The notes beneath the pieces are model-generated. The model made no database searches, was not told the DNA's origin, and worked only from the letters and a program-made list of their open reading frames with translations. From a virus: 64,000 bases of DNA. Position numbers and translations under genes: made by a program. Positions 4,513-58,296 of the stretch are shown here, piece after piece. The DNA lies in IMG/VR virus record IMGVR_UViG_3300032307_000731, positions 1 through 64,000 of that record; one strand, given 5' to 3'. Position 1 is the stretch's first letter; each line of letters starts with the position of its first letter.

Positions 4513-5199
4513 ATGAAAAAGAATAAGATTAGTGAAGCAACCGGTTCCGGAAATGCAGGTTCAATTAAAGTTCCAATAGTGTTGGCGCCCCAAATTTGGG
4601 GGAAAAATCAATTAGGTCCATTTACTGATAGTGTTTATCATTATTCAAACGCCGAATTAGCGTATGAAGAGGCCGATGGTGATTTTAAAGAATCACCACA
4701 AAAAAGAAAAGAAATTGAAGATAGAACAATAAAAACCTCAAAAATGTTAATGAAGCAAAAACAATCTTATCAGGGACAAAATGATGAGGAAGGTTCTGCA
4801 ATTAACCCCACCTTAGATGGTAAACCTATTAAAGAAGATTTATTAAGAGAGGATTTAGCGGTTTGGTTTGGTACTAAGAAAAAACCTAAGGGGTCTAAGC
4901 AACCAAAAGGTCCTTGGGTTAATATTTGTCGTAAAGTTGACGGAAAACATCCTCCATGTGGTCGGCCTGATGCGAGTCCAAAAAGTTATCCAAAATGTCG
5001 AGCAGCAGGAGTCGCGGGGAAAATGAGTGATAGTGAAAAAAAATCTGCTTGTTCACAAAAACGTAGAGAGGAAAAGAAAGACCCTAAAATTGGTAAAGGT
5101 AATAAACCAACAATGGTTAGTTATAAACCAAAAAAACCTCAAAACGAATCGTTAAGAGGTTTGATTATCAAAATAATTAAAGAACAATATAAAAATTAA
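4513..5199 (+). CDS. Cysteine-containing phage protein with C-terminal amphipathic tag
   Basis: The protein has 228 residues. The N-terminal part (SEATGSGNAGS, then VYHYSNAELAYEEADGDF) looks processed or extended. Residues about 113-190 carry a domain with CGRPDASPKSYPKCR and a basic SACSQKRREEKK segment, similar to the DUF5872-type domains common in marine T4-like phages and giant viruses. The last residues (SLRGLIIKIIKEQYKN) form an amphipathic helix like the terminal tags of other small proteins in this window. Function is unknown; an internal virion protein is possible. Confidence 0.6.
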   Translation: MKKNKISEATGSGNAGSIKVPIVLAPQIWGKNQLGPFTDSVYHYSNAELAYEEADGDFKESPQKRKEIEDRTIKTSKMLMKQKQSYQGQNDEEGSAINPTLDGKPIKEDLLREDLAVWFGTKKKPKGSKQPKGPWVNICRKVDGKHPPCGRPDASPKSYPKCRAAGVAGKMSDSEKKSACSQKRREEKKDPKIGKGNKPTMVSYKPKKPQNESLRGLIIKIIKEQYKN

Positions 5200-5842: not shown

Positions 5843-8545
5843 ATGAAAACAAAATTTTTAGGAGCATTGCTATTAACATTAGCATTTTCGTTAGGAGCTT
5901 TCTCCCAAACAAAAGGAAAAGTAGTTGACCAATCTACAAATGAACCATTGGTCGGGGCTCATGTTCAGTTTAAAACTGAACATGCAACCACAGGTCTTGA
6001 AGGAGAATTCGAATTAAAGACCGCAAAAACTAATGATATTATTACAATATCTTTTTTAGGGTTCGGAAAGAAACAATATACTGTAAATGGTAATAACGTT
6101 TCAATTTCACTTATCCCTGAAGAAAATTCACTAGCAGAAGTTGTAGTTGTTGGTAAAGGGGTAATTGACGTTGCTCAAGGTCGTAAAACACCTATTGCAG
6201 TGTCAACCATCAAAATGGCTGAAATCCAATCTAAAATTGGTTCTAATGACATTACACAAACATTGGTTAACACACCATCAGTTTATGTTGCAGGTCAATC
6301 AGGTGGTTTTGGTGATTCAAGAATTTCGGTTCGTGGATTCCAACAAGATAACACAGCGTTCTTATTAAACGGACAACCAATTAATGGTATGGAAGATGGT
6401 AAGATGTATTGGTCGAATTGGTCAGGTATGGGAGATATCGCAAGTGCGATTCAAATCCAAAGAGGTTTAGGTTCTTCTAAACTAGCAATATCTTCAGTTG
6501 GAGGTACTGTGAACTTTATTACTAAGACTATCGATAAAAGAGAAGGTGGTTTTGTATCTACCGGTCTTGGTAATGACAATTATTTAAAAACAACAGCATC
6601 GTATAGTACAGGTCTAATGAAAAACGGATTGGCTGTTACTACAATGTTCTCACATTGGGAAGGTGATGGTTATAATGACGGGACTCAAGGACAAGGTCAA
6701 AACTATTTTATCTCATTAGGTTATAAATTAAATGACAAACATAATTTTAACTTCTTAATTACAGGTGCACCACAATGGCACAATCAAAACTTTAGTAAAA
6801 GAATTTCAGATTATTTAGGGTTCGGTAGAAAATACAACAATAACTATGGTTATTTAAACGGACAATTTTTGTCTGAAAGAGTAAACTTCTATCACAAACC
6901 GGTCGCGAATATTAACTGGGATTATAAGATTAGTGAAAAAACTAATTTATCTACAGTGTTATATGCATCTTGGGGTAGAGGTGGTGGAACCGGAAACTAT
7001 GGTGGTTCCGCTAATAAAAAATTCAAAACTGAATTAAACCCTTACACTAACCAAGTTCAAAACACATATATTGATTTTGACCAAATTTATGCAAACAATA
7101 GTAATCTTGCTAATGGTGCTGGAACATTTAATAATAGTTATTTAATTAGGTCATCAATGAATAACCATTCTTGGTATGGTGTTGTGTCTAACCTTAATAC
7201 AAAATTAAATGAAAACCTTAATTTAAATTTAGGGGTTGATTTAAGAACTTATGATGGTACACACTACAGACAAGTTAATAACTTTTTAGGTTTAACAAAC
7301 TTTACAGACTCAAGAAGATTAAGAGGAAGTAATCACCAAATGCAAGGTAGTAATGTTTTACAAACTGTAACAGAATCATTATCAACAAATCCTTGGGGCG
7401 CTTCATTTAACAATTTAAGTGAATCTCAAAGAATTGATTATGATTATAGTGAAACAATTAACTATGGTGGTATATTCGGACAATTAGAATATAGTAAAGA
7501 TGATTTCTCGGCATTCGTACAAGGGTCTTTATCAAATCAAACACACGTTAGATTTGATACGTATGATTACTTACCTGAATTTAAAGAATCTGAGAAAGTT
7601 GAAAATTTAGGATATAACCTTAAAGCTGGTGGTAGTTACTCAATTAATGACAAACACTCAGTCTATGTGAATACAGGGTTATATTCTCGTCAACCATACC
7701 ATGATAACATTTATTTGAACTTTACGAATGAAGTGAACCCATTAACATCAAATGAAAAAATATTTGGTTTAGAGGGTGGATATACATTCAAATCTAAATA
7801 TGTGAGTGGTAGTGTTAATGCTTACAGAACTTCTTGGAAAGATAGGGTTGTTTCGTCTTCAAGAGTGGTAACGTTAGCTACAGAGACAATCGGAACAACA
7901 GTGTTGACTCAAGGTGATTTAGTTTACAAATCTAATTTAGGTGTAGAACAAATTCATAATGGTATAGAATTAGATTTTATTGTAAGACCAATAAATAAAT
8001 TAGACATTAAAGGTTTTGCATCTATTGGTAATTGGGAATATAATGGTAGTTCAATAACTAGACAAACAGATGAAAATCAAAATTTATTAACAGAAACTTT
8101 AGTGGATGTTGATGGAGGTAAAGTTGGAGACGCGGCTCAAACTACTTGGGGATTAGGTGCTAAATATGAAGTATTAAGAGGTTTATCTATTGACGCTGAT
8201 TGGAGAACTTACGATGAGTTATATGCAAGCGTCGGTGCTGTTAAAGACAATTTATTATTACCAACGTATGATTTAGTTGACGCAGGTGTTTCTTATAAAT
8301 TATTATTAGGTAAAAACAAAAAAGATAATTTAACTTTTAGAGTAAATGTTAACAACGTATTTGATGAAGTTTATTTATCTGAATTATCAAGTAACATTAA
8401 AACAACTGACAATTTAAGTTCATCTAACCCATCATTAGGGACTTATCAATCAAATGGTAGAGTTTATAATGGAATTGCTGATGGTAACCAAGGGTTCTTC
8501 GGATTAGGTAGAACTTGGAACTTATCTTTACGTTACAATTTCTAA
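5843..8545 (+). CDS. TonB-dependent outer membrane receptor (full length)
   Basis: The protein has 900 residues and all parts of a Bacteroidota TonB-dependent receptor: a signal peptide (1-21, ending LGAFSQ); a carboxypeptidase-regulatory-like beta-sandwich (about 23-95, with GKVVDQSTNEPLVGAHV); a plug domain (about 113-225, with ISVRGFQQDNTAFLLNGQPI and SVGGTVNFITKTI); and a long beta-barrel that ends in the aromatic residue expected for BamA-dependent insertion (LSLRYNF). No frameshift is seen. Such receptors import siderophores, vitamins or glycans using TonB energy. The gene is unusual cargo in a phage. It is followed by a terminator and has no clear TAnnTTTG promoter upstream. The substrate cannot be read from the sequence. 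Confidence 0.93.
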   Translation: MKTKFLGALLLTLAFSLGAFSQTKGKVVDQSTNEPLVGAHVQFKTEHATTGLEGEFELKTAKTNDIITISFLGFGKKQYTVNGNNVSISLIPEENSLAEVVVVGKGVIDVAQGRKTPIAVSTIKMAEIQSKIGSNDITQTLVNTPSVYVAGQSGGFGDSRISVRGFQQDNTAFLLNGQPINGMEDGKMYWSNWSGMGDIASAIQIQRGLGSSKLAISSVGGTVNFITKTIDKREGGFVSTGLGNDNYLKTTASYSTGLMKNGLAVTTMFSHWEGDGYNDGTQGQGQNYFISLGYKLNDKHNFNFLITGAPQWHNQNFSKRISDYLGFGRKYNNNYGYLNGQFLSERVNFYHKPVANINWDYKISEKTNLSTVLYASWGRGGGTGNYGGSANKKFKTELNPYTNQVQNTYIDFDQIYANNSNLANGAGTFNNSYLIRSSMNNHSWYGVVSNLNTKLNENLNLNLGVDLRTYDGTHYRQVNNFLGLTNFTDSRRLRGSNHQMQGSNVLQTVTESLSTNPWGASFNNLSESQRIDYDYSETINYGGIFGQLEYSKDDFSAFVQGSLSNQTHVRFDTYDYLPEFKESEKVENLGYNLKAGGSYSINDKHSVYVNTGLYSRQPYHDNIYLNFTNEVNPLTSNEKIFGLEGGYTFKSKYVSGSVNAYRTSWKDRVVSSSRVVTLATETIGTTVLTQGDLVYKSNLGVEQIHNGIELDFIVRPINKLDIKGFASIGNWEYNGSSITRQTDENQNLLTETLVDVDGGKVGDAAQTTWGLGAKYEVLRGLSIDADWRTYDELYASVGAVKDNLLLPTYDLVDAGVSYKLLLGKNKKDNLTFRVNVNNVFDEVYLSELSSNIKTTDNLSSSNPSLGTYQSNGRVYNGIADGNQGFFGLGRTWNLSLRYNF

Positions 8546-8597: not shown

Positions 8598-9281
8598 TTA
8601 ACAATATGGTGGTGAACACCTTTTTTTTCCGTCTAATCCGGGTTTAGTTCCTTTACACACTTGAACCGCATATCCATTCGCATATGCGCTAGGATACACA
8701 TCAAATTTTGATTTAGCTGCTGATTTACCTCTGGCACATAATTTAGTTCCGGTTTTCTTTTTACCCTCTGAAACTACAGGTTCACTTTGACGTTTTGCTT
8801 TATCAAGATAGTCATAAACTTTATCTCCGTACATTTGATAAATTTTCTTAATAAATTGAGCAGGACTCTTCCTAATATATCTAATAACATCATTAGGAAT
8901 ATACTGACCATATTTATCCCCAAATAAAGATTTTACTTGACGTTCTCTGTCACTTGTTGGTCTATCAGAGTCACTTGAATAATCTTGTTCATTAACATCT
9001 TCATAATCAATATATTCTTTTTTAGTTTCGTTCATTAAAAAATCGAATACTTGGTCCATATTATTTTTAGCTTCAGTTACGTGGTCATCTGCCCAATCAT
9101 GCCCCCCTTCATTAATAATTTCATCAATTTGTTGAGGGTCCATTTCTAACAATATTTCACATTGTCTTTTAATTTGTTGTAAATTACTAAAAAACATATA
9201 ATCTGCGACTTCTTGTTCTTTTAAAACTTTCTTTACGATTTTATTTAAATCGGATTCAGTTAATTTAATTATTTTTTTCAT
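8598..9281 (-). CDS. Tagged phage protein with FDVYPSAYAN cysteine domain
   Basis: The protein has 227 residues. It begins with an amphipathic segment (IKLTESDLNKIVKKVLKEQ), the clearest case of the terminal tag seen on several proteins here. The middle is acidic and helical. The C-terminal 50 residues hold a compact motif, LCARGKSAAKSKFDVYPSAY, then AVQVCKG and RCSPPYC, which I associate with small domains found in many large marine phages and giant viruses; its function is not established. The gene is the 3'-most of the minus-strand block and overlaps the next gene by one base. A virion role fits its baseplate neighbours. Confidence 0.65.
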   Translation of the reverse strand: MKKIIKLTESDLNKIVKKVLKEQEVADYMFFSNLQQIKRQCEILLEMDPQQIDEIINEGGHDWADDHVTEAKNNMDQVFDFLMNETKKEYIDYEDVNEQDYSSDSDRPTSDRERQVKSLFGDKYGQYIPNDVIRYIRKSPAQFIKKIYQMYGDKVYDYLDKAKRQSEPVVSEGKKKTGTKLCARGKSAAKSKFDVYPSAYANGYAVQVCKGTKPGLDGKKRCSPPYC

Positions 9282-37562: not shown

Positions 37563-39572
37563 ATGGCAATCGGAATAAGAATTTTAAGTGATAATTTAAG
37601 TGGTTTAACCACAAATGTAACATTTTTACCTCAATCAGGTGGAACAATCAGTCTTGGGACCCAAGTATTCCCATTTAATTATATTTCAGACTATGTTTAT
37701 GGAACATACAATTGTTATGTGCCAACATATGGATACACTTATAGTTTAGATGTTTTAGGTCCGACTCCAACACCGACTACTACGATAACTCCAACAAATA
37801 CAAGTACTCCAACTCAAACTCCAACAAATACAAGTACTCCAACTCAAACTCCAACAAATACAAGTACTCCAACTCAAACTCCAACAAATACAAGTACTCC
37901 AACTCAAACTCCAACTTCAACAACTATTGCTAGATATATCTTTAGTATATGTCATGATGAATCAGATGTGGACAATGTTTGTAATTGTCCCGCTAATGCA
38001 ACTGTATGGACTAATAATCCCGTATTTAGTGCAAGTACGTTAATATGGTCAGACGCTTCAGGTCCTAACACAGGAAATCCTGAAGGGTGGTATGCAACTG
38101 ATAGTTTTATTTATTTTGCAAGTACTGAATGTGGACCGGGATGTACAAGTGGTGCAACACTAACTCTTGTTGGTCCATGTAGTGTTACTCCAACACCAAC
38201 TCCAACAAATACAGGAACACCAACACCAACTCCAACACAAACTCAAATTCAAATTTTGGTAACATACCTTATTGCACCTTGTTTGGGTGGTACGGCTTTA
38301 AATGTTGACTTTAATAGTGTATCTCTTCCTGTAATTGGAGGAAATTATTATTTAACATTCTCAGGAGAAACATCAGATGGGTGTTATGAAATTGTTAATA
38401 CTGAGGCCCCGGGAACTGGTTCTGATTATGTATCATCATTATCGATAGATTATGATAATTGTTCGACTTGTTTAAGTGTTGTGACAACACCTACTCCAAC
38501 ACCAACTAATACATCAACTAATACACAGACGCCAACTAATACACCTACTAATACATCAACACCTATTGTAAGTTCAACGCCAACAACAACACCGACTAAT
38601 ACAGAAACTCCAACTAATACACCGACTAATACTCCGACAAATACGGAAACTCCAACTAACACACCAACTAACACAGAAACTCCAACTAACACACCGACAA
38701 ATACGGAAACTCCAACTAATACACCAACTAACACAGAAACTCCAACTAACACACCGACAAATACGGAAACCCCAACTAATACACCAACTAATACAGGAAC
38801 ACCTGCGGAAACACCAACAAACACACCAACTAACACCGAAACTCCAACTAATACACCAACAAATACACCAACTCAAACTCAAACAGGTACCCCAACAAAT
38901 ACTCCAACAAATACACCAACTCAAACACCAACTCAAACTCAAACTCAAACTCAAACAGGTACACCAACAAATACTCCAACTAATACTCCAACTAATACAC
39001 CGACAAATACACAAACACCTACTCAAACTTCTACACCTACATCAACATTTGCATGGTATACGTATAGTTTAGGGACAGGTGCAACTTCTAATGATGCGTG
39101 TAATGCAATACCACAAACAATCTACGGAACAATTGAAGGTGGTGTAGGTCCAAACGTGGGTGAATATTTATACGAAACCGAAGGAAGACCTCTTACAGAT
39201 GCAGTGCCTGATGGATATTATTCTGACGGAACCTCATCGTATCGAGTTACAGGTGGTTTTGGACAAATTACTTCATCAGACCCATTAGGTTGTGCTGGTT
39301 TAATTACTCAAACTCCAACCTCAAGTCCAACACCAACACAGACAACACCTCTAACTCTTTACTATGACACACTACCTAATTGTGGTGCAACTAATCCATT
39401 TAATAATGTTATTTTAGATAATGACTTTTGTTCTGCAACAACAATAACATCAACAACAGTATTGCCTGATGGAACTTATTGGATAGTTGATAGTCTTCTT
39501 TCAGGTAGAAGAGATATTATTGCAAGTTCGGGTACATACACATTTAATGGTGGTTGTGTGGGTTGTGCATAA
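37563..39572 (+). CDS. Mucin-like adhesin with long Thr/Pro repeats (first)
   Basis: The protein has 669 residues. Globular domains alternate with stalks. An N-terminal domain (1-70) is followed by a [10 protein letters not shown] stalk, a Cys-containing domain (about 120-212), a stalk, another (about 225-310), and then a roughly 180-residue stalk made of [12 protein letters not shown] and [11 protein letters not shown] units. [16 protein letters not shown] domain follows (about 495-580), and a last domain with [10 protein letters not shown] and GGCVGC ends the protein. The stalk contains almost only Thr, Pro, Asn, Glu and Gln, offering dense O-glycosylation sites. It likely holds binding domains away from the capsid or tail. 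Confidence 0.8.
37791..37910 (+). repeat. Four perfect 30-base tandem repeats
   Basis: Four exact copies of a 30-base unit beginning CCAACAAATACAAGTACTCC encode [10 protein letters not shown]. Perfect identity points to recent expansion or conversion, so copy number probably varies between isolates. Confidence 0.95.
38480..39045 (+). repeat. Long imperfect Thr/Pro coding repeat array
   Basis: About 560 bases of 12-, 30- and 60-base related units (ACTCCAACTAATACACC and variants) encode the main stalk of the adhesin at 37563. A 60-base higher-order period is visible at about 38650-38790. Confidence 0.9.
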
Positions 39573-39613
39573 AATTATTTTAACATAAAAACATAAAATC
39601 AATACTATCATAG

Positions 39614-39620
39614 TATTTAT
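39614..39620 (+). promoter_or_regulatory. Candidate late promoter motif TATTTAT
   Basis: TATTTAT (followed by ATATA) ends 18 bases before the ATG at 39639. Confidence 0.5.
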
Positions 39621-39638
39621 ATATAAAACAGAAATAAG

Positions 39639-41543
39639 ATGGCATGTAGTAAATATACTTTAACAAATACAGGTTCTACAATAGTGAACTTTAACTATAG
39701 AAGATGTGATGATTCTCTATGGCAATATCAAGTTGAATTAATTCCAAATCAAACTAAAAATATTTGGTTACTTAATAATACTTATTCAATTGCACCTTCA
39801 TTTAGAAATAGTGTTGTATTGGTAAACCAAGGCGCATTTCCTCCGGTTACGGCTAGTAATACACCAACTCAGACCAATACACCAACTACCACTCAAACTC
39901 CAACACCAAGTAATACTGCCACAAATACGCCTACACCAACTCAAACTCAGACTCAAACTCAAACACAAACTCAGACTCAAACACAAACTCAGACTCCGAC
40001 AAATACGGAAACTCCAACTAATACTCCAACCCAAACTCAAACTCAGACTCCGACAAATACGGAAACTCCAACTAATACTCCAACACCAACAAATACAGAA
40101 ACTCCAACTAATACTCCAACACCAACTCAGACTCAAACTCCAACCACAACTTTTTTATATTTTATTTATAGTTTAGGTTTTGGAAATAATGCAAGTGATG
40201 CATGTAATGATTTTGCAGCATCACCTCAAACTGTTTATGGTCAAGTAGTTGACGGACCGGGTCCTAATGTTGGTGAATTCTTATATCAAACACCTGGTAA
40301 CCCATTAACTAATCCTGTTTCTGACGGATATTATTCTAATGGAACTGCTTGGTTTATTGTATCAGGAGGTTTAGGTGAAATTACACAATCAGACCCTAAT
40401 GGTTGTATTGGATTACCAACGGCAACGCCAACTAGTACTCCAACAAATACACCAACAAATACAGGAACACCGGCAGAAACTCCAACTAATACTCCAACAA
40501 ATACAGAAACTCCAACAGGAACACCAACTAACACTCCAACAGGAACACCAACTCAAACACCAACTCCAACTGCTAATAGATTTGCGTTTACAGTTTATTC
40601 AGGAACAACATCTGACGAGGCATGTGGATTATATTTCCCATCAATAACAATTTATGGTGAAGAACAGGTTTTTGATGATAATACAATACTTTATGATACA
40701 ATTGTTGGACCAAGTGTTGGAAACTTAACAGGATATTTCAATAATTCTCAAATTGTTGTTCAATTAAATAATGGTGTGGAAACAGGTGGTTATGTTGCTT
40801 GTCAAACCTTAACTCCAACACCTACACAAACTCAGACACAAACGCCTACACAAACATCTACTCAAACACCTACTCAAACATCTACTCAGACTCCAACTCC
40901 AACTCAAACTCCAACTCAAACAGGAACACCAACACAAACTCCAACACCAACAGGTAATAGATTTGCATTTACTGTTTATTCAGGAACAACATCTGACGAG
41001 GCATGTGGACTATATTTCCCATCAATAACAATTTATGGTGAAGATTCTTTATTTGATGAAAATACTATATTCTACAATACAATTGTTGGTCCAAGTACAT
41101 TAAACTTGACCGGATACTTTAATAATTCTCAAATAGTTGTTCAATTAAATAATGGTACACAAACAGGAGGTTTTTCATTATGTCAAACATTGACTCCAAC
41201 ACCGACACAAACATCAACTCAAACTCCTACACCAACAAATACACAAACTCCTACACAAACATCTACTCAAACACCAACTCCTACATCAACTTTCGCTTAT
41301 TATACATATAGTTTAGGAACGGGAGCAACGTCAGGAGCGGCGTGTATTGCAACACCACAAACAATTTATGGAACTGTTGCAGGAGGACCTGGCCCTAATA
41401 CGGGTGAGACATTATACTTAACCGCAGGTATCCCTCCAACTAATCCAGTACCTGATGGATGGTATTCTGACGGAACTAAAACTATTAACGTAACAGGTGG
41501 ATTAGGTGTAGTTTTCTCCGTAAATCCAACGGGATGTGCATAA
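39639..41543 (+). CDS. Mucin-like adhesin with long Thr/Pro repeats (second)
   Basis: The protein has 634 residues. An N-terminal domain (CSKYTLTNTGSTIVNF, to about 70) is followed by alternating Thr/Pro stalks and four small domains of about 75-85 residues. The first and last are of the type ending TIYG...PNVGE...PDGYYSDGT...GGLG (about 173-255 and 555-634). The middle two are near-identical copies beginning FAFTVYSGTTSDEACGLYF. Each has two Cys, probably one disulfide. The bead-on-stalk design suits multivalent binding. It has no signal peptide and is followed by a terminator. Confidence 0.8.
   Translation: MACSKYTLTNTGSTIVNFNYRRCDDSLWQYQVELIPNQTKNIWLLNNTYSIAPSFRNSVVLVNQGAFPPVTASNTPTQTNTPTTTQTPTPSNTATNTPTPTQTQTQTQTQTQTQTQTQTPTNTETPTNTPTQTQTQTPTNTETPTNTPTPTNTETPTNTPTPTQTQTPTTTFLYFIYSLGFGNNASDACNDFAASPQTVYGQVVDGPGPNVGEFLYQTPGNPLTNPVSDGYYSNGTAWFIVSGGLGEITQSDPNGCIGLPTATPTSTPTNTPTNTGTPAETPTNTPTNTETPTGTPTNTPTGTPTQTPTPTANRFAFTVYSGTTSDEACGLYFPSITIYGEEQVFDDNTILYDTIVGPSVGNLTGYFNNSQIVVQLNNGVETGGYVACQTLTPTPTQTQTQTPTQTSTQTPTQTSTQTPTPTQTPTQTGTPTQTPTPTGNRFAFTVYSGTTSDEACGLYFPSITIYGEDSLFDENTIFYNTIVGPSTLNLTGYFNNSQIVVQLNNGTQTGGFSLCQTLTPTPTQTSTQTPTPTNTQTPTQTSTQTPTPTSTFAYYTYSLGTGATSGAACIATPQTIYGTVAGGPGPNTGETLYLTAGIPPTNPVPDGWYSDGTKTINVTGGLGVVFSVNPTGCA
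39861..40148 (+). repeat. Thr/Pro/Gln coding repeat array
   Basis: Runs of ACTCAAACTCAGACT and ACGGAAACTCCAACTAATACTCC units encode a TQTQTQTP and TETPTNTP stalk in the adhesin at 39639. Confidence 0.85.
40575..41190 (+). repeat. Duplicated adhesin domain with intervening stalk
   Basis: Two copies of a roughly 230-base domain (about 40575-40805 and 40960-41188) are separated by a Thr/Pro stalk. They are nearly identical over their first 80 bases and their C-terminal NNSQIVVQLNNG part, pointing to internal duplication. Confidence 0.85.
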
Positions 41544-51542: not shown

Positions 51543-52664
51543 TTATATTACGTAAATTTGTCGAGGCATTGCTCTAAATTTCATTTGTTTGTTTAAGTTT
51601 TCTGCGATTAACGCTTCTCGTTCCATTACTTTTTCAGGTCTTAATCTTGTTAACCATCCTTCGGCACCTGTAAGTTCTTCAAGTAATTTTGTTTTTTCAT
51701 CCTTTGCCTCAGTTGATAAAGATTGGTAATCCATCGTTAATTCACTATCAGGTGTTTTAAGATTTCCACTATATTTTCCTCTAACTCTTGCTAAAGTTTC
51801 TTTACAATATGCCGTAAACCATCTTCTAACCCATTGTTGTCCCGGAACGTTTAGGTCTTCCCAACTTAATTCTTCAAGTGGTACATCTGTTGGTAATTTA
51901 ATTACATCAGGATTATTTTTTAAACAATCCGCTCTATTGTCAGGTGTTACATCATAATACCAATACCAAACTGCTTTACCAACATATTGTCCATAACTTG
52001 ACCAGTTGAATCTTCCTCCCGGTGTATTGTATAAGTGAATGTTTTTCTTACCATCAGGTAAACCTGTTATTCTATATGTTAAAGAGCCACCTAAAATTCT
52101 GTTAAGAATATTTGATTCTTGTGCTCTGATTAAGTAATCGAATCCTGACATCATAAAGTAAGACCCCTGATTACCCATTTGAGCAAAACCTGCTTCACTA
52201 GCACCAAGTCCAACACCACCAAAAGGACCTGCCATACCACCTAATCCAAGATTATATGGACGGTCACTAAACCATAAAAGTTCGTTAACTTCTCTACCTG
52301 CGGGAATTTCATATGTTTGGACATTCTTCTCAAGAATAAAATAATCTTTCTTTAACACCCAAGGACCTTCAGTTTGAAGACCGACGATTTTAGAATACGA
52401 ATAACTAAACTGTTGTTCAAAATCCATGGTTCGAGTAATCAAAGCTTTTGCAACTGATTTCTCATTCATGTTTAGGTTAACTAAATTAACCCATTGACTA
52501 TCTATTAACCATTGAAGAACATATTCTTCATAGTCACCTATAGATAATTCCATTAACGAGTCCATCATTTCATCCTCAAGTTCAACACTTCTAAGTGGTG
52601 CACCTAATTGATGTTTGACTCTAGTATAAATTTTACTTCTTTCTGGTTCCGGTATAACTGCCAT
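51543..52664 (-). CDS. Neck (head completion) protein, gp13-like
   Basis: The protein has 373 residues. IYTRVKHQLGAPLRSVEL at the start, a Gly-rich loop (about 140-170), a FDYLIRAQESNILNRILGGS segment and the end MKFRAMPRQIYVI match my memory of neck proteins in T4-like cyanophages and related phages. In T4, gp13 joins the head to the tail with gp14. Support comes from the gp14-like, gp15-like and gp18-like genes downstream in T4 order, although this gene is on the opposite strand. Confidence 0.5.
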   Translation of the reverse strand: MAVIPEPERSKIYTRVKHQLGAPLRSVELEDEMMDSLMELSIGDYEEYVLQWLIDSQWVNLVNLNMNEKSVAKALITRTMDFEQQFSYSYSKIVGLQTEGPWVLKKDYFILEKNVQTYEIPAGREVNELLWFSDRPYNLGLGGMAGPFGGVGLGASEAGFAQMGNQGSYFMMSGFDYLIRAQESNILNRILGGSLTYRITGLPDGKKNIHLYNTPGGRFNWSSYGQYVGKAVWYWYYDVTPDNRADCLKNNPDVIKLPTDVPLEELSWEDLNVPGQQWVRRWFTAYCKETLARVRGKYSGNLKTPDSELTMDYQSLSTEAKDEKTKLLEELTGAEGWLTRLRPEKVMEREALIAENLNKQMKFRAMPRQIYVI

Positions 52665-52687: not shown

Positions 52688-54220
52688 TTATTGTATATCA
52701 TATAATAAAGAATCTAATGGAAATAAAAAGTTACCATTAACAATTACAGGTTTTTTATCAAAAACTAAAACATTTTTACCTTTTTGAAAAATCATTAAAT
52801 CCGTTTTATACATTTTAACACTTGCGGTTCCCTCAAGTAAAATACCCTCATCTGTTATCTTTTTTTCTCGGAAAGGTTTAACTTGAGCGGTTTTAGTTAC
52901 ACCATCTTTGGTTATCTCTAAATCAATTCCACCAATTCCATCTCTTTTACTTCCAAGTTCACCAACAATTTCAACTTTAACACCTTTACCAAAATATCTT
53001 CTTAATATTGAAGCTGTTATCTCTTCACGTTTTGAACCCGCAGCATCCTTAACAATTAAGACCTTTAACAAGTTTTGAAATGTTGAACTCTCTCGATTAA
53101 ATATTTTAAATTTATAATAGTTAATTGCTGAAACAAATCTTGTAGCTTCTTTTTTTTGTTCTTCAATATTTTTATTTCTAAAATTAATTGGTGGTTCTTT
53201 TGTTAATTTTGTAATAACTTGATTTAAATCATTTAATAAAATACAGAATGTTGTGTAATTCGTATTTAATTTATTAATTATTGACCGACCTGGTCCTTCT
53301 AAGTCATAGACACCTGACATTTGGTTATTACTTGGATTTTGAATATAATTTTCGGAAAAAACTTCTTTCAAAATCCTATCAATACCATGCATATAAATCC
53401 ATTTAACATCTTCGTTAGTGTTAAATAAAGTTCTATAAAATTCGTTTTCAGATGATGAACACATTTCTGATTTACCTTCACTTAATATTAGTCTCATTTT
53501 TGTGGACTCTAAAAGTTTTGTTTCAGTTTTCATTTCATATAATTTGGAAACAAAATTCCAATTCACAACTTTCCAAAAGTTTGAGATATACTCATCTCTC
53601 TTATTCCTATACTTTAGATAGTAAGCGTGTTCCCATAAATCTAATCCTAATAGTGGGAATCCACCACCTTCGATAACATTCATTAGTGGGTTATCTTGGT
53701 TTGGGGTAGACATAATTTTTAAAGTATTTCTTGATGTTAAAACTAACCATACCCAACCCGAACCAAATCGTTCTTTTGCAATTTTTTCAAATTCTTTTTT
53801 AAAGGTAGGAAAACTACCATATTGTTTGGTAATTTTATTTAAAAGTTCCCCTTTAAGTTTTGTGGGTGTTGGTGATAACATATTCCAAAACAATGCGTGG
53901 TTAAATGCACCTCCGGCATTATTTCGAATTGTTTTATCAAATCGACTAATTGTTTTAATTATTTGAATTAGTTCTAAATCCCCGTATTTTTTCTTTGAAA
54001 GAGCGTCATTCAATTTATCCACGTATCCCTTGTAATGTTTGTTGTAGTGAAATTCCATTGTTTCGGGGTCAATGAATTGTTTCAAGGCTGAGTAAGAGTA
54101 AGGTAATTTTTCAATCCCTATTTTCTTCATTTCTGTAATCAACAGATTTTTTTCCTTAAGTACGTGGTTCCCAAGGATTGTTGTTTCTAATTGTTGAATT
54201 TTTTGTTCTATTTTTTTCAT
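52688..54220 (-). CDS. Mn-type superoxide dismutase fused to a nuclease-like domain
   Basis: The protein has 510 residues. After a coiled-coil-like start (1-35), residues 36-225 form a complete Fe/Mn superoxide dismutase. The metal ligands are visible: His58 (MEFHYNKHY), His108 (FNHALFW), Asp194 and His198 (LGLDLWEHAY). NNAGGAFNH and the later NQDNPLM glutamine favour Mn over Fe. SODs convert superoxide to peroxide and oxygen. Residues 226-510 are extra: helices and then a PD-(D/E)xK-like core, SKREEITASILRR, GGIDLEI (Asp433) and AQVK (Gln446, Lys448), similar to the Mrr catalytic pattern. No frameshift separates the parts. Confidence 0.85.
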   Translation of the reverse strand: MKKIEQKIQQLETTILGNHVLKEKNLLITEMKKIGIEKLPYSYSALKQFIDPETMEFHYNKHYKGYVDKLNDALSKKKYGDLELIQIIKTISRFDKTIRNNAGGAFNHALFWNMLSPTPTKLKGELLNKITKQYGSFPTFKKEFEKIAKERFGSGWVWLVLTSRNTLKIMSTPNQDNPLMNVIEGGGFPLLGLDLWEHAYYLKYRNKRDEYISNFWKVVNWNFVSKLYEMKTETKLLESTKMRLILSEGKSEMCSSSENEFYRTLFNTNEDVKWIYMHGIDRILKEVFSENYIQNPSNNQMSGVYDLEGPGRSIINKLNTNYTTFCILLNDLNQVITKLTKEPPINFRNKNIEEQKKEATRFVSAINYYKFKIFNRESSTFQNLLKVLIVKDAAGSKREEITASILRRYFGKGVKVEIVGELGSKRDGIGGIDLEITKDGVTKTAQVKPFREKKITDEGILLEGTASVKMYKTDLMIFQKGKNVLVFDKKPVIVNGNFLFPLDSLLYDIQ

Positions 54221-54242
54221 ATGTTTGGATTAACCATTACAT

Positions 54243-54249
54243 ATAAATA
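54243..54249 (-). promoter_or_regulatory. Candidate late promoter motif TATTTAT
   Basis: On the minus strand TATTTAT ends 22 bases before the SOD fusion start at 54220, in the gap after the helicase gene. Confidence 0.45.
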
Positions 54250-54262
54250 ATCAAAAAATAGT

Positions 54263-56017
54263 TTAACGACGCATTTCATTAATTCTCTTTAATATTTCTT
54301 CCGCGGCATCAGCTGTATTTTGATTATCTCCCATGACGGTGGCTATCACTTGTTTTTTATTATGTAGTATGTCGTAAATAATACCCTCAATAGTATTTTC
54401 AAAAATTGGGTAATAAACTAATACATTATTTTTTTGACCATAACGATATGCTCGGTCTTCCGCTTGTGCGTGGTCAGATGGTAAAAATGATAAATCATTA
54501 AAGATAACAGCTTCGGCGGATGTTAAAGTAATACCAACACCAGCGGCTTTAATATTACCAACAAATACTTTTACTTTTTCGTTTTCTTGAAATTGGTCCA
54601 CACTAAATTGTCTTTCAACCTTTGACATTGACCCATCAAGTTTAACCGCAGCTTTCCCAAAATGTTCTGTTATTTTATTTAATGAATCAGTAAAATTACA
54701 GAATATAATAACTTTTTTATCTTGTTCTATAATGTTCTCAGCTATCTCGATAGTTTGTGCAATTTTTTCATCGGCAATAATTTGACGAACTTTGGTCAGT
54801 TTGGTAAATTGTACCGTTAAAGATTTTGATTCTTCCGGATTTTTTTCATACCAATTATAGTAGTCACCCATTACTTCCTCGTATACTTTTGATTTTAATC
54901 TCAAATATACTGGTGTAATAATTTTGTCGGGTAAATCTAATACATTTTCTTTTAACCTTCTTAAGGTTAGACCTACGGTTCTATCTCTCAATTCTTCAAG
55001 GTTTGATGCTCCTTGAACGTTCCAAATTTTTCTTGGACCAACTTTAAATTGAAAACCGGCACAATAACGAATAACATATGCCATCCAATTCTTGGCAACA
55101 GGTGAATCAATTAAACTAAGTAAATTAAAATAATCGATTGGACGGGATGTCATTGGTGTACCGGTTAACAACCATAATCTATCAACACTCTTGGTGATGT
55201 CGTTAATAAGTTTTGTTCTTTGAGCTTGGGCATTTTTGATATAGTGTGCCTCATCAATAATAATTAAATCGAATTTGGACATTAAAATTAACGACTCATC
55301 TTTTTTCTTAGGGTCGTGAAAATTTTTAATAATATCGTAATTAACAATAACAAAATCATCTTCTGTACTAAATTGTTTTCCTTCAGATATGAATATACTT
55401 CGGTCTGAATAATTTTCTATTTCTCGTTTCCAGTTAATTTTTAAAGTTGCCGGACAAATTATTAAAATTTTCTTTGCTCCGGTTTCTAACGCGGCTATAA
55501 TAGTTGATGTGGTTTTACCAAGACCCATATCATCGGCAAGGATAAACTTTTTATTCTCAACTAATTTTTGGATTGCCTCTTTTTGATGTTCAAGAGGTGG
55601 ACGATTAGAATATTTTGAATAATCTATTACAACATCTTTAACCGAATTATCTTTAATGATTGCGGCTTTTGGTAACCAAAAGTGGTGGAATTCCTCATTC
55701 TCAAATACTTTACCCCAAATATGATACGCCTTTTCTTTATCACATAATAGTTTTTCTACCCAAACTTTTTGTGGTATTTCCGTGTATAGTTTATCGTCGG
55801 CGAGTTTTTGAGCAAAGTAGGCATCAAGTATTACCCATTTTTTTGCAACTTTGGGTTGTTTGTCATGATTATTAACAATATATTCTGATTGACTCCTTGT
55901 TGGATAAAACTTTCTGTTTAATTGAGATTTACGTTTTAATTCAATTAAATAATTATTACCCCCTTCATAAGTTTCCAATAGGGATAACGCCTTTGACTCT
56001 ATACTAGTATTTTCCAT
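54263..56017 (-). CDS. SNF2-family DNA helicase/translocase
   Basis: The protein has 584 residues. Walker A is DDMGLGKTTST (GLGKT at 165-169), Walker B is IIIDEAHYIKN (DEAH at 255-258), motif III is LLTGTPMTSR, and motif VI is QAEDRAYRYGQ, which marks the SNF2 family. The N-terminal 135 residues may bind DNA. It resembles the SMARCAL1-type ATPases and T4 UvsW in role: it moves on DNA to reverse forks or branch-migrate during repair. It overlaps the SET-domain gene by one base. Confidence 0.93.
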   Translation of the reverse strand: MENTSIESKALSLLETYEGGNNYLIELKRKSQLNRKFYPTRSQSEYIVNNHDKQPKVAKKWVILDAYFAQKLADDKLYTEIPQKVWVEKLLCDKEKAYHIWGKVFENEEFHHFWLPKAAIIKDNSVKDVVIDYSKYSNRPPLEHQKEAIQKLVENKKFILADDMGLGKTTSTIIAALETGAKKILIICPATLKINWKREIENYSDRSIFISEGKQFSTEDDFVIVNYDIIKNFHDPKKKDESLILMSKFDLIIIDEAHYIKNAQAQRTKLINDITKSVDRLWLLTGTPMTSRPIDYFNLLSLIDSPVAKNWMAYVIRYCAGFQFKVGPRKIWNVQGASNLEELRDRTVGLTLRRLKENVLDLPDKIITPVYLRLKSKVYEEVMGDYYNWYEKNPEESKSLTVQFTKLTKVRQIIADEKIAQTIEIAENIIEQDKKVIIFCNFTDSLNKITEHFGKAAVKLDGSMSKVERQFSVDQFQENEKVKVFVGNIKAAGVGITLTSAEAVIFNDLSFLPSDHAQAEDRAYRYGQKNNVLVYYPIFENTIEGIIYDILHNKKQVIATVMGDNQNTADAAEEILKRINEMRR

Positions 56018-56385
56018 TATTCAAACACACTACCATTACCATAGTTTATTAACAATTCTTCCTCTTCATTAATATCTCTTAATGCAAAATATACAAATGT
56101 TCGTTCTTCATTATTTGTGTACCAATCAACATTTGGTGTTTCAGAGTGATTGTAATATGAACCATAACCCAACACCAACGCATGTTCATCCCAATTTTCA
56201 GAACGAGGATAGCAAAATGAATAATTTGAAAAAACCGGTATTTTTTCCTTAGAATTTTGAGGAAAAGAAAGAAAAGGGCATACATCTATTACTTCACCTT
56301 TTTTTATGGTTTGTGAAGAAAAAACCCCTAAATTATGTAAGGGACTGTCTTTTAAATATATTTTAGTTGGAGGACTGATTTTCAT
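56017..56385 (-). CDS. SET-domain protein (putative lysine methyltransferase)
   Basis: The protein has 122 residues, just a minimal SET domain. The N-terminal SET motif is LGVFSSQTIKKGEVI (19-33); the SAM-binding and pseudoknot part is YYNHSETPNVDW (Asn79-His80), and the final ELLINYG has the catalytic-region Tyr115. It lacks cysteine-rich pre- and post-SET parts. SET enzymes methylate lysine in proteins such as histones or ribosomal proteins. The target in a bacterial cell is unknown. It is coupled to the SNF2 helicase, whose families occur together in eukaryotic chromatin; here the pairing may be chance. Confidence 0.85.
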   Translation of the reverse strand: MKISPPTKIYLKDSPLHNLGVFSSQTIKKGEVIDVCPFLSFPQNSKEKIPVFSNYSFCYPRSENWDEHALVLGYGSYYNHSETPNVDWYTNNEERTFVYFALRDINEEEELLINYGNGSVFE

Positions 56386-56457: not shown

Positions 56458-56970
56458 ATGCAAAAATTAGTTCCAATAACAAGACTAGGTAAATTCTTTG
56501 GTGCTGAAGATTATGCTTTGGATATTGGTATGGGTGAAGAATGGTTATTGGGAGATATGAACTTTACCGTAATTCTTTACCGTATTGATAGATATAAAAC
56601 CAAAACGGATGATGTTTATGGTGAGGTAACGGAAGATGGTATTCAATTTATGGCACCTGTTGAATTACAAGGATTAGTTCAAGTTATGGCACCAACCTCT
56701 AAGAATTATGGAAATTCACGAGTTGAATTACAAGAACCTGGTAATATGAAATTTTCATTGTATCAAAAAACTCTTGACGATATGGGTGTTGAGATATTCC
56801 AAGGGGATTATCTTGGGTATTATGAAACTGAAGATAGAGTTAGATATTATGTTGTAAGTGATGATGGATATGTTAGGTCAGATAATAAACATACATATGG
56901 AGGATACAAACCATTCTACAGAAGTGTTGTTGCAACTTATGTAAGTGAAAACGAATTTAGAGGAATATAA
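56458..56970 (+). CDS. Neck protein, gp14-like
   Basis: The protein has 170 residues. DDVYGEVTEDGIQFMAPVEL, then VMAPTSKNYGNSRVELQEPG, MKFSLYQKTLDD, VEIFQGDYLGYYETEDRVRY and the closing Tyr-rich YRSVVATYVSENEFRG match the pattern of head-tail neck proteins in T4-like phages (gp14 type). It would work with the gp13-like protein to close the head and join the tail. The next gene starts on the last base of its stop. Confidence 0.5.
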   Translation: MQKLVPITRLGKFFGAEDYALDIGMGEEWLLGDMNFTVILYRIDRYKTKTDDVYGEVTEDGIQFMAPVELQGLVQVMAPTSKNYGNSRVELQEPGNMKFSLYQKTLDDMGVEIFQGDYLGYYETEDRVRYYVVSDDGYVRSDNKHTYGGYKPFYRSVVATYVSENEFRGI

Positions 56971-57359
56971 TGGAATACGTAATAAAAGAGAGTAAATTAT
57001 TTAATGCCATCTATCAGTATATTAATGGGTCTTATGATTTGACTAAAATTGATTTTTTTAATCCAACCACTTGGAATGATGATGAACATGATGACAAAGA
57101 AAATCCATATATTACGGAGTTTTTCAATACAGAATATGATGGTGATTATGATGAAAATGGGATGTTATTTATTTATATTGTAAAGGAATATTATTCAGAT
57201 GAACCTTCAAGACAATCTTTTATAAATCAAACACCAATTTTAATTGTTAATGATTATGGAAAATTAGAAACAATGTTTGGTGAATATTGGAAAGACCCTT
57301 TTAAAAAATGGTTTGAAAATAAATTTGAATTACCTGTTAAAACAATTGTTGCTGATTAA
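56970..57359 (+). CDS. Acidic tagged protein, tandem copy 1
   Basis: The protein has 129 residues, very acidic. It begins MEYVIKESKLFNAIYQYI, the short tag form seen also on the next two genes, and ends with KKWFENKFELPVKTI. It shares the same start and end pattern with the gene at 57359, so the two are duplicates. TAATG overlaps join this gene to both neighbours. Function unknown. Confidence 0.65.
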   Translation: MEYVIKESKLFNAIYQYINGSYDLTKIDFFNPTTWNDDEHDDKENPYITEFFNTEYDGDYDENGMLFIYIVKEYYSDEPSRQSFINQTPILIVNDYGKLETMFGEYWKDPFKKWFENKFELPVKTIVAD

Positions 57360-57760
57360 TGGAATACGTAATAACAGAGAGTAGATTATTTAATGCTATC
57401 TATCAGTATCTTGATAGTTATCTAAACCCAAACGAAATTGATTGGGTTTATGGAGTTGGTACTGATGAAGATGGTTATGAGGATATAGATAAGGATGATG
57501 AAAACTTTTTAATGTTCTTTAAAGGAGAGTGGAATGGGGAAGATGATACTGACATAGTTTTTTATTATTTTGATGTGGATTATTATGAAAATAGTCCATC
57601 AACTAAATCGTTTAGAAATCAAGCACCTATTTTAGAAGTTATGGGTAAATATGGTGAACATTTAGACACTATGTTTGATGACCATTGGGTCGAACCTATG
57701 AAAAAATGGGTTCAAGATAATTTTAAATTACCGGTTAAATCGGTATCAACACATTATTAA
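57359..57760 (+). CDS. Acidic tagged protein, tandem copy 2
   Basis: The protein has 133 residues and is the paralogue of the gene at 56970: MEYVITESRLFNAIYQYL at the start and KKWVQDNFKLPVKSV near the end, with a diverged acidic middle (DEDGYEDIDKDDENF). No known domain. The coupled arrangement suggests equal amounts of both proteins, perhaps as a complex. Confidence 0.65.
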   Translation: MEYVITESRLFNAIYQYLDSYLNPNEIDWVYGVGTDEDGYEDIDKDDENFLMFFKGEWNGEDDTDIVFYYFDVDYYENSPSTKSFRNQAPILEVMGKYGEHLDTMFDDHWVEPMKKWVQDNFKLPVKSVSTHY

Positions 57761-57762
57761 TA

Positions 57763-58296
57763 ATGAAAGTATTAGTTAAAGAATCTCAATTAAGAAGAAT
57801 ATTTGAAATTGTCACAAAAGATAAAGTAATTTGTGACGAGTGTGGTTGGTCATGGGATTTAGCTGATGGTGGTGACGACCCTTATATTTGTCATAAATGT
57901 GGTCATGATAATGAAGAAAAAAAACATATAGGTGATAGAGTTATGGTGTATTATAATCTACATAAGCATACTTTTTCAGTTACTTATGATGGTAGGGTTA
58001 TAACTCATGCTGACTATGTTAAATTAACAGATGTTGAATTTAGGGTAAGACAAGGTGGTAGAGAAAAAGTTATTAAAGAAAAAAGAAAAAATGTTCATTC
58101 GTTTGTGATTGGTACTTTAGTGGATTATTGTAAATACCCATGTGAAAACCTACCGGATGAACCGAATAATAATATTGTTACATACAACCCTTACAAATAT
58201 AATACTTATGTAATGAAGGGTACTGAAGAGCCAGTATATCGAGCAAATGAGGTCGATATGATTAATTTAAAGAATAAATTATTTATAATAAGTTAA
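57763..58296 (+). CDS. Tagged zinc-ribbon protein
   Basis: The protein has 177 residues. It starts with MKVLVKESQLRRIFEIV (tag form). Residues about 24-48 are a zinc ribbon, CDECGWSWDLADGG and then CHKCGHDN, a type frequent in phages of Bacteroidota. The C-terminal part is beta-rich (VMVYYNLHKHTFSVTYDGRV). It could bind nucleic acid or protein. It starts 2 bases after the previous stop. Confidence 0.65.
   Translation: MKVLVKESQLRRIFEIVTKDKVICDECGWSWDLADGGDDPYICHKCGHDNEEKKHIGDRVMVYYNLHKHTFSVTYDGRVITHADYVKLTDVEFRVRQGGREKVIKEKRKNVHSFVIGTLVDYCKYPCENLPDEPNNNIVTYNPYKYNTYVMKGTEEPVYRANEVDMINLKNKLFIIS

What the first reader, a model, noticed from the sequence alone, without database searches (positions are those of the whole stretch)
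52688..54220. Superoxide dismutase fused to a PD-(D/E)xK nuclease-like domain
Seen: all four SOD metal ligands (His58, His108, Asp194, His198) plus Mn-type features in residues 36-225, then about 285 extra residues containing SKREE...GGIDLEI...AQVK, the layout of Mrr-type nucleases with Gln in place of Glu in the ExK motif. Known: SODs are normally stand-alone 200-residue enzymes. Inference: the fusion could link oxygen-radical chemistry to DNA cleavage or binding, for example a defence or exclusion factor triggered by redox state, or a virion protein that uses the SOD fold for structure. I know of no described fusion of this kind.
Basis: partly seen in the sequence, partly recalled or inferred. 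Interest (0 to 1): 0.87.

Follow-up and report, generated by a model that had tools for sequence, protein, structure and literature searches.

The report
Cleavable phage superoxide dismutase–nuclease precursor
A large group of uncultured aquatic phages carries one gene that joins an intact superoxide dismutase to a DNA-cutting-type domain, with three conserved sites like those cut by a phage head protease exactly at the domain borders, so the protein is probably packed in the virus head, cut apart and injected with the phage DNA.

Summary
On the minus strand, 54220-52688 is one 510-residue ORF: a full Mn-type superoxide dismutase (SOD, residues 36-229) followed by a module predicted with high confidence (pLDDT 94.6) as a PD-(D/E)xK nuclease fold. 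It is not an assembly error: I recovered 122 further distinct fusions. In all 123 the SOD ligands and the nuclease residues E399, D433, Q446 and K448 are invariant, although the nuclease module diverges down to 23% identity while SOD stays at 71% or more. One is the SOD metal site. The other three (E30, E238, E248) sit exactly at the domain borders and match L/I-x-E, the cleavage consensus of the T4 prohead protease gp21. Sibling phages encode that protease and a gp23-type capsid protein. The gene lies directly upstream of a neck gene, behind a promoter-like motif shared with structural genes. Best reading: a capsid-packaged, protease-matured, ejected SOD plus nuclease. Packaging, cleavage and enzyme activity are inferred, not shown. 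I found no isolate and no paper describing it; one UniProt entry is named only 'superoxide dismutase'.

The parts
52688..54220 (-). SOD-nuclease fusion ORF, 510 aa (P0001)
   Evidence: 122 further distinct homologues
54131..54220 (-). Residues 1-30: variable N-terminal segment, predicted helix, candidate capsid-targeting propeptide
   Evidence: ends in conserved [IL]xE|M; inferred by analogy with T4 (PMC9026906)
54128..54139 (-). Site 1, I28-T-E30|M31, prohead-protease-type motif
   Evidence: E30 123/123, I/L at -2 123/123
53534..54115 (-). Mn-type superoxide dismutase domain, residues 36-229; ligands H58, H108, D194, H198
53504..53515 (-). Site 2, L236-L-E238|S239, prohead-protease-type motif
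   Evidence: E238 123/123, L/I at -2 123/123
53474..53485 (-). Site 3, L246-S-E248|G249, prohead-protease-type motif, in the low-confidence linker 233-250
   Evidence: E248 120/123, L/I/M at -2 123/123
52691..53473 (-). C-terminal module, residues 250-510: helical region plus PD-(D/E)xK nuclease-like core with E399, D433, Q446, K448
54242..54249 (-). TATTTATA promoter-like motif, starting 29 bases before the start codon
   Evidence: upstream of 13 of 94 genes vs 0.71 expected; 28 of 159 vs 1.25 in a sibling; 110 of 122 family members
51543..52664 (-). Head-tail adaptor (neck) gene, immediately downstream, same strand (context)
   Evidence: phrog_211 E=1.7e-9; adjacent in 81 of 81 loci
54263..56017 (-). 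SNF2-type helicase gene, immediately upstream (context)
   Evidence: adjacent in 74 of 75 loci

Best explanation
The gene encodes a late, capsid-packaged precursor of T4-like phages, probably of Bacteroidota. The N-terminal 30 residues target it into the prohead. The gp21-type prohead protease cuts after E30, and after E238 and/or E248. This leaves two mature internal proteins, a Mn superoxide dismutase and a PD-(D/E)xK nuclease, which are ejected with the DNA. The SOD would remove superoxide around the packaged or entering genome; the nuclease would act early on host or competitor DNA, or on a structure in the entering DNA. Shown here: the fusion, the predicted fold, the invariant active sites, the three L/I-x-E sites at the domain borders, the protease and gp23 capsid gene in siblings, and the neck-gene context. 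Inferred: packaging, cleavage, ejection and both activities. The target of the nuclease is a guess.
For: Three of the four conserved [LIM]xE columns in the 510-residue protein lie in the inter-domain segments, about 11% of its length; the fourth is the SOD metal-site LWEH. The residue between L/I and E varies while both are held. The sites persist while the nuclease module diverges to 23% identity. T4 gp21 cuts after L/I-X-E; a short N-terminal capsid-targeting sequence packages internal proteins, even foreign nucleases; Alt is also trimmed at its C terminus (PMC9026906). Sibling phages encode a Peptidase_S77 (gp21) and a gp23 capsid protein, and that capsid protein has a conserved LINE|A motif where a propeptide cut is expected. 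The gene is fixed upstream of the neck gene (81 of 81) behind a motif shared with portal-, tail- and baseplate-type genes. dN/dS is 0.047 for SOD and 0.091 for the C-terminal module, so both are under purifying selection. Precedent: PBCV-1 packages its SOD in the virion (PMC7019647).
Against: No proteomics and no isolate. The window's contig (115-kb fragment) contains neither protease nor capsid gene. E248 is not kept in 3 of 123 sequences, and by direct reading two sequences have V in place of L/I at site 3. The genome-wide N-terminal excess of such motifs is modest (40 proteins vs 23.3 +/- 4.3 in shuffles; 11.4 vs 6.1 conserved sites per 1000 columns). One targeting sequence followed by two folded enzymes is not the usual T4 layout. 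Packaging an active nuclease with the genome needs some restraint on it.
Confidence: 0.57

Rival explanations
1. A packaged but uncut bifunctional protein: SOD and nuclease stay joined and the L/I-x-E sites are only linkers. SOD protects the head contents or dimerises the nuclease.
For: The fusion is universal in the family; SODs form dimers or tetramers (general knowledge) and could assemble the nuclease domains; residues 233-250 are predicted flexible.
Against: A mere linker would not be expected to keep Glu and Leu/Ile two before it through deep divergence while the residue between varies. Site 1 lies before the SOD, where no linker is needed.
Confidence: 0.15
2. An intracellular enzyme made during infection (a classic auxiliary gene): SOD protects the infected cell from superoxide, and the nuclease module acts in phage DNA metabolism, for example junction resolution.
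For: Freshwater phages carry many ROS-defence genes, SOD included, read this way by Kavagutti et al. (PMC6802176). The fold weakly resembles Hjc resolvases. A helicase gene lies next door.
Against: It is a fixed gene next to a neck gene with a late-type motif, unlike a patchy auxiliary gene. The cut-site pattern stays unexplained.
Confidence: 0.18
3. A superinfection-exclusion or counter-defence nuclease, made in the cell or ejected, whose faster-evolving C-terminal module tracks a host or rival-phage target; SOD only stabilises or protects it.
For: The C-terminal module evolves about twice as fast as SOD and exists as very divergent types on nearly constant SODs. A sub-threshold Pfam match to an ABC-3C component (MC4) was seen.
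Against: No defence-system association; PADLOC gives one weak match only; purifying selection still dominates.
Confidence: 0.08
4. Chance or artefact: a read-through, sequencing error or misread motif.
For: None found.
Against: 122 further distinct ORFs from many contigs, invariant active sites, low dN/dS.
Confidence: 0.01

Closest known systems
T4 internal/ejection proteins (IPI-III, Alt) with capsid-targeting sequence, processed by gp21 (PMC9026906, PMC7411985)
   Same: Short N-terminal segment ending in L/I-x-E; phage group with gp21-type protease and gp23 capsid protein; late structural context.
   Different: Here the mature part would be two enzymes separated by two further sites. Sequence similarity to IPs or Alt was not tested. 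Packaging is unproven.
Fe/Mn superoxide dismutase family (Sod_Fe_N + Sod_Fe_C)
   Same: Full domain, all ligands, Mn-type residues.
   Different: Normally a stand-alone protein of about 200 residues; here fused and flanked by cut-type sites.
PD-(D/E)xK nucleases (I-Ssp6803I, Hjc; DUF6602 and EcoO109I as weak Pfam leads)
   Same: Helix with Glu, then strands with Asp and QxK; Foldseek matches.
   Different: E-values are modest and no named family passes its cut-off. It has its own helical N-terminal half.
PBCV-1 Cu/Zn SOD packaged in the virion (PMC7019647)
   Same: A virus-packaged SOD thought to lower superoxide in infected cells.
   Different: Unrelated SOD class, algal virus, not fused to a nuclease.
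UniProt A0A6J5L953, 'superoxide dismutase' of an uncultured Caudovirales phage, 501 aa
   Same: Same C-terminal module (38% identity, TM-score 0.89) under an SOD name; evidently the same fusion.
   Different: Annotated only as SOD; I could not read its sequence.
Polyvalent proteins of phages and conjugative elements (PMC5512222)
   Same: Multi-domain phage proteins deployed in conflicts with the host.
   Different: Only title and abstract start were seen; no shared domain was tested.

Membership tests
Fe/Mn superoxide dismutase | Both Pfam domains above cut-off | tested here: met
   77.2 and 135.9 bits vs cut-offs 27 and 20.9
Fe/Mn superoxide dismutase | Four metal ligands and Mn-type residues | tested here: met
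   H58, H108, D194, H198, G103, Q175 in 123/123; which residues mark the Mn type is from general knowledge
Fe/Mn superoxide dismutase | Superoxide dismutation activity | not testable with these tools
   Needs purified protein
PD-(D/E)xK superfamily | Core fold | tested here: met
   pLDDT 94.6 model; top solved matches are superfamily members, best E=3.4e-3 with probability 1.00, though none is below 1e-3
PD-(D/E)xK superfamily | Catalytic Glu, Asp and (D/E/Q)xK in the right elements | tested here: met
   E399 in long helix, D433 at a strand start, Q446/K448 in the next strand; invariant 123/123 and in LR756501; active-site geometry not measured
PD-(D/E)xK superfamily | Nuclease activity | not testable with these tools
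   Needs an assay
Mrr restriction family | Match to a Mrr family model | tested here: not met
   No Mrr model among the Pfam matches listed for P0001 or for 29 relatives
T4-type protease-processed internal head protein | N-terminal segment ending in L/I-x-E | tested here: met
   Site 1 columns 123/123
T4-type protease-processed internal head protein | gp21-type protease in the same phage | tested here: inconclusive
   Found in two sibling contigs carrying the fusion; not in the window's own 115-kb fragment
T4-type protease-processed internal head protein | Present in virions, cleaved, ejected | not testable with these tools
   Needs virion mass spectrometry and infection assays

The most novel reading that the evidence does not exclude
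A virion-borne polyprotein: a prohead protease liberates an antioxidant enzyme and a DNA nuclease inside the head, and both are injected together. Superoxide chemistry (protecting the genome, or the nuclease) would thus be coupled to an early attack on host or rival DNA.
Probability: 0.4. Interest if true: 0.85.

Novelty: new variant of a known kind. Interest (0 to 1): 0.7.

Why it matters
If right, a common group of aquatic phages injects an antioxidant enzyme and a nuclease made as one precursor and cut apart in the head. That would move these phage SODs from 'auxiliary metabolic genes' that help the host to virion proteins, and would show that a phage head protease can mature a multi-enzyme precursor. 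The claim is directly testable by virion proteomics.

Tried and rejected
Internal translation start at M242 for a stand-alone nuclease: rejected, since M is present in only 70 of 81 sequences. Plus-strand reading of the region: full of stops. C-terminal relatives in bacterial genomes: none confirmed. Relatives of the stand-alone LR756501 protein in viral contigs: none. Second copies of the nuclease module in 10 sibling contigs: none. SOD without the module among close SOD relatives: none; apparent cases were divergent modules or cut contigs. PHROGs: no match. Profile of the module against sequences of solved structures: no match. PADLOC: one weak match to ShosA, E=0.012, dismissed. The nearest isolates by capsid protein (for example Flavobacterium phage immuto, 42% identity) are not among the phage records that match P0001. 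A paper on Baltic Flavobacterium phages does not mention immuto or mass spectrometry. Paper searches found no description of the fusion, within an open-licence library only. Shuffle and ortholog tests of a genome-wide N-terminal tag gave modest support only.

Full report
The object. The finding is one ORF on the minus strand of the window, 54220 to 52688, 510 aa; the plus strand is closed by stops. Residues 37-226 match both Fe/Mn SOD Pfam domains well above cut-off, and the nearest solved chains are SODs of the Fe/Mn family, many of them Mn SODs. The remaining residues match no family above cut-off in Pfam, PHROGs or NCBIfam. The Pfam leads are sub-threshold: DUF6602 (25 of 29 members, best E=7e-4), MC4, and EcoO109I.

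Is it real? Scans with the C-terminal module returned more. Two further scans from divergent members gave 82 loci, all of them SOD fusions. From all loci I extracted 122 distinct complete proteins plus the query. Gene order is fixed: the neck gene follows on the same strand in 81 of 81 testable loci and the helicase precedes it in 74 of 75. In 115 pairs with moderate dS, median dN/dS is 0.047 (SOD) and 0.091 (C-terminal module), so both parts are maintained. A sequencing-error fusion is excluded.

The C-terminal module. AlphaFold2 with 29 family sequences gave pLDDT 94.6 and pTM 0.88. A long helix carries E399; D433 opens a strand; Q446 and K448 lie in the next strand. Foldseek against solved structures puts the homing endonuclease I-Ssp6803I first (E=3.4e-3, probability 1.00), then restriction enzymes and Hjc resolvases at much weaker E-values. 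None is below 1e-3, so the fold call rests on topology, motif and these matches together. E, D, Q and K are invariant in 123 of 123 and in a stand-alone 290-aa relative, at about 24% identity to the divergent clade, in a 735-kb phage. That pattern suits an active enzyme better than a decayed one. I could not measure the active-site geometry.

The cut-type sites. In the alignment of 123 sequences, four columns have Glu in at least 90% with L, I or M two before it in at least 85%. One is E197, part of the SOD metal-site LWEH. The others are E30 (just before SOD), E238 and E248 (between SOD and nuclease). At E30 and E238 the Glu and the L/I are kept in 123 of 123; at E248 the Glu is kept in 120. 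The residue between varies. These are the domain borders, and the second pair lies in the low-confidence stretch of the full model, 233-250. T4 gp21 cuts after L/I-X-E and removes short N-terminal capsid-targeting sequences from packaged proteins (PMC9026906).

Does the phage have the machinery? The window is 64 kb of a 115-kb contig in which no protease or gp23 gene was found. Two sibling contigs carrying the fusion encode a Peptidase_S77 (gp21) above cut-off, and five carry at least part of a gp23-type capsid protein. That capsid protein aligns with T4 gp23 from its residue 72, and a conserved LINE|A motif sits at residue 60, where a propeptide cut is expected. In the 182-kb sibling G001, 40 of 151 proteins have an [LIM]xE[GASQN] motif in the first 40 residues versus 23.3 +/- 4.3 in shuffles, with none of 500 shuffles reaching 40. 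In 66 ortholog pairs conserved [LI]xE sites are 11.4 per 1000 columns in residues 1-30 and 6.1 beyond 60. These support a packaging-tag system only modestly.

Expression. TATTTATA occurs within 60 bases upstream of 13 of 94 genes in the window's contig versus 0.71 expected, and of 28 of 159 versus 1.25 in G001; its reverse complement does so for 1 and 6 genes. Genes so marked include the fusion, the neck gene (window's contig) and, in G001, a 618-aa portal-type protein and tail- and baseplate-type proteins; these last names are my reading of size, order and sequence, not database matches. The motif is present in 110 of 122 fusion loci. I read it as a late promoter element, unproven.

Mechanism. 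Best supported: late synthesis, targeting by residues 1-30, cuts by the gp21-type protease, release of SOD and nuclease in the head, then ejection. The motifs, the protease in siblings and the architecture are shown by sequence; the acts are inferred. The nuclease's target is unknown. Its faster divergence on a near-constant SOD (median pairwise identity 38% versus 87%) hints at a changing target. The host phylum is inferred from the nearest isolates by capsid protein, which include Flavobacterium phages, and from Bacteroidota-type secreted proteins in the window (for the TonB-dependent receptor).

What is known. Phage SODs are known among freshwater ROS genes and read as helping the host (PMC6802176). 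PBCV-1 packages an unrelated SOD (PMC7019647). I found no paper on this fusion, but the library is open-licence only and my searches were few. UniProt A0A6J5L953 is evidently the same fusion under the name SOD.

Verdict. Observation confirmed; interpretation partly supported; new variant of a known kind, because packaged, protease-trimmed enzymes are known but a SOD-nuclease precursor with sites at its domain borders is not, as far as I could find.

Noticed in passing
window 54242-54249 and upstream of 12 other genes in the 115-kb contig: TATTTATA is strongly over-represented upstream of genes in one orientation (13 of 94 vs 0.71 expected; 28 of 159 vs 1.25 in sibling G001): a candidate late promoter element (the T4 late promoter TATAAATA, from memory, is its reverse complement).
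   Followed up: partly
window 5843-8545 (+): A 900-aa TonB-dependent receptor-like protein (Plug and CarboxypepD_reg domains, signal peptide-like start) in a phage genome.
   Followed up: partly
window 8598-9281, 56970-57359, 57359-57760, 57763-58296, 4513-5199: Many unrelated ORFs carry short N-terminal tags such as MKKIIKLTESDLNKIVKKVLKEQ, MEYVIKESKLF, MKVLVKESQLR, MKKNKISEA, possible capsid-targeting sequences; similar starts occur in Flavobacterium phage immuto (L272).
   Followed up: partly
L180:17933-19030 (-): A polyphosphate kinase 2 (PF03976, E=2.9e-70) with a tag-like N terminus (MGIIKEAEE) and the TATTTATA motif upstream: another possible packaged enzyme.
   Followed up: partly
L179:234-704 (-): DUF5856 protein with a tag-like N terminus (YKVIQLSEAEKK) and the TATTTATA motif upstream.
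   Followed up: partly
window 56017-56385; L159:5302-5739: A SET-domain protein lies near the fusion in the window, and a SET-like protein lies beside the stand-alone nuclease-like gene in the 735-kb phage LR756501.
   Followed up: no
L297, L323, L328, L331: Contigs of 317-326 kb carry the same fusion, so it also occurs in jumbo-size phages.
   Followed up: no
window 15044-47959: A long block of glycosyltransferase- and sugar-epimerase-like genes around threonine-proline repeat proteins (37563-41543).
   Followed up: no
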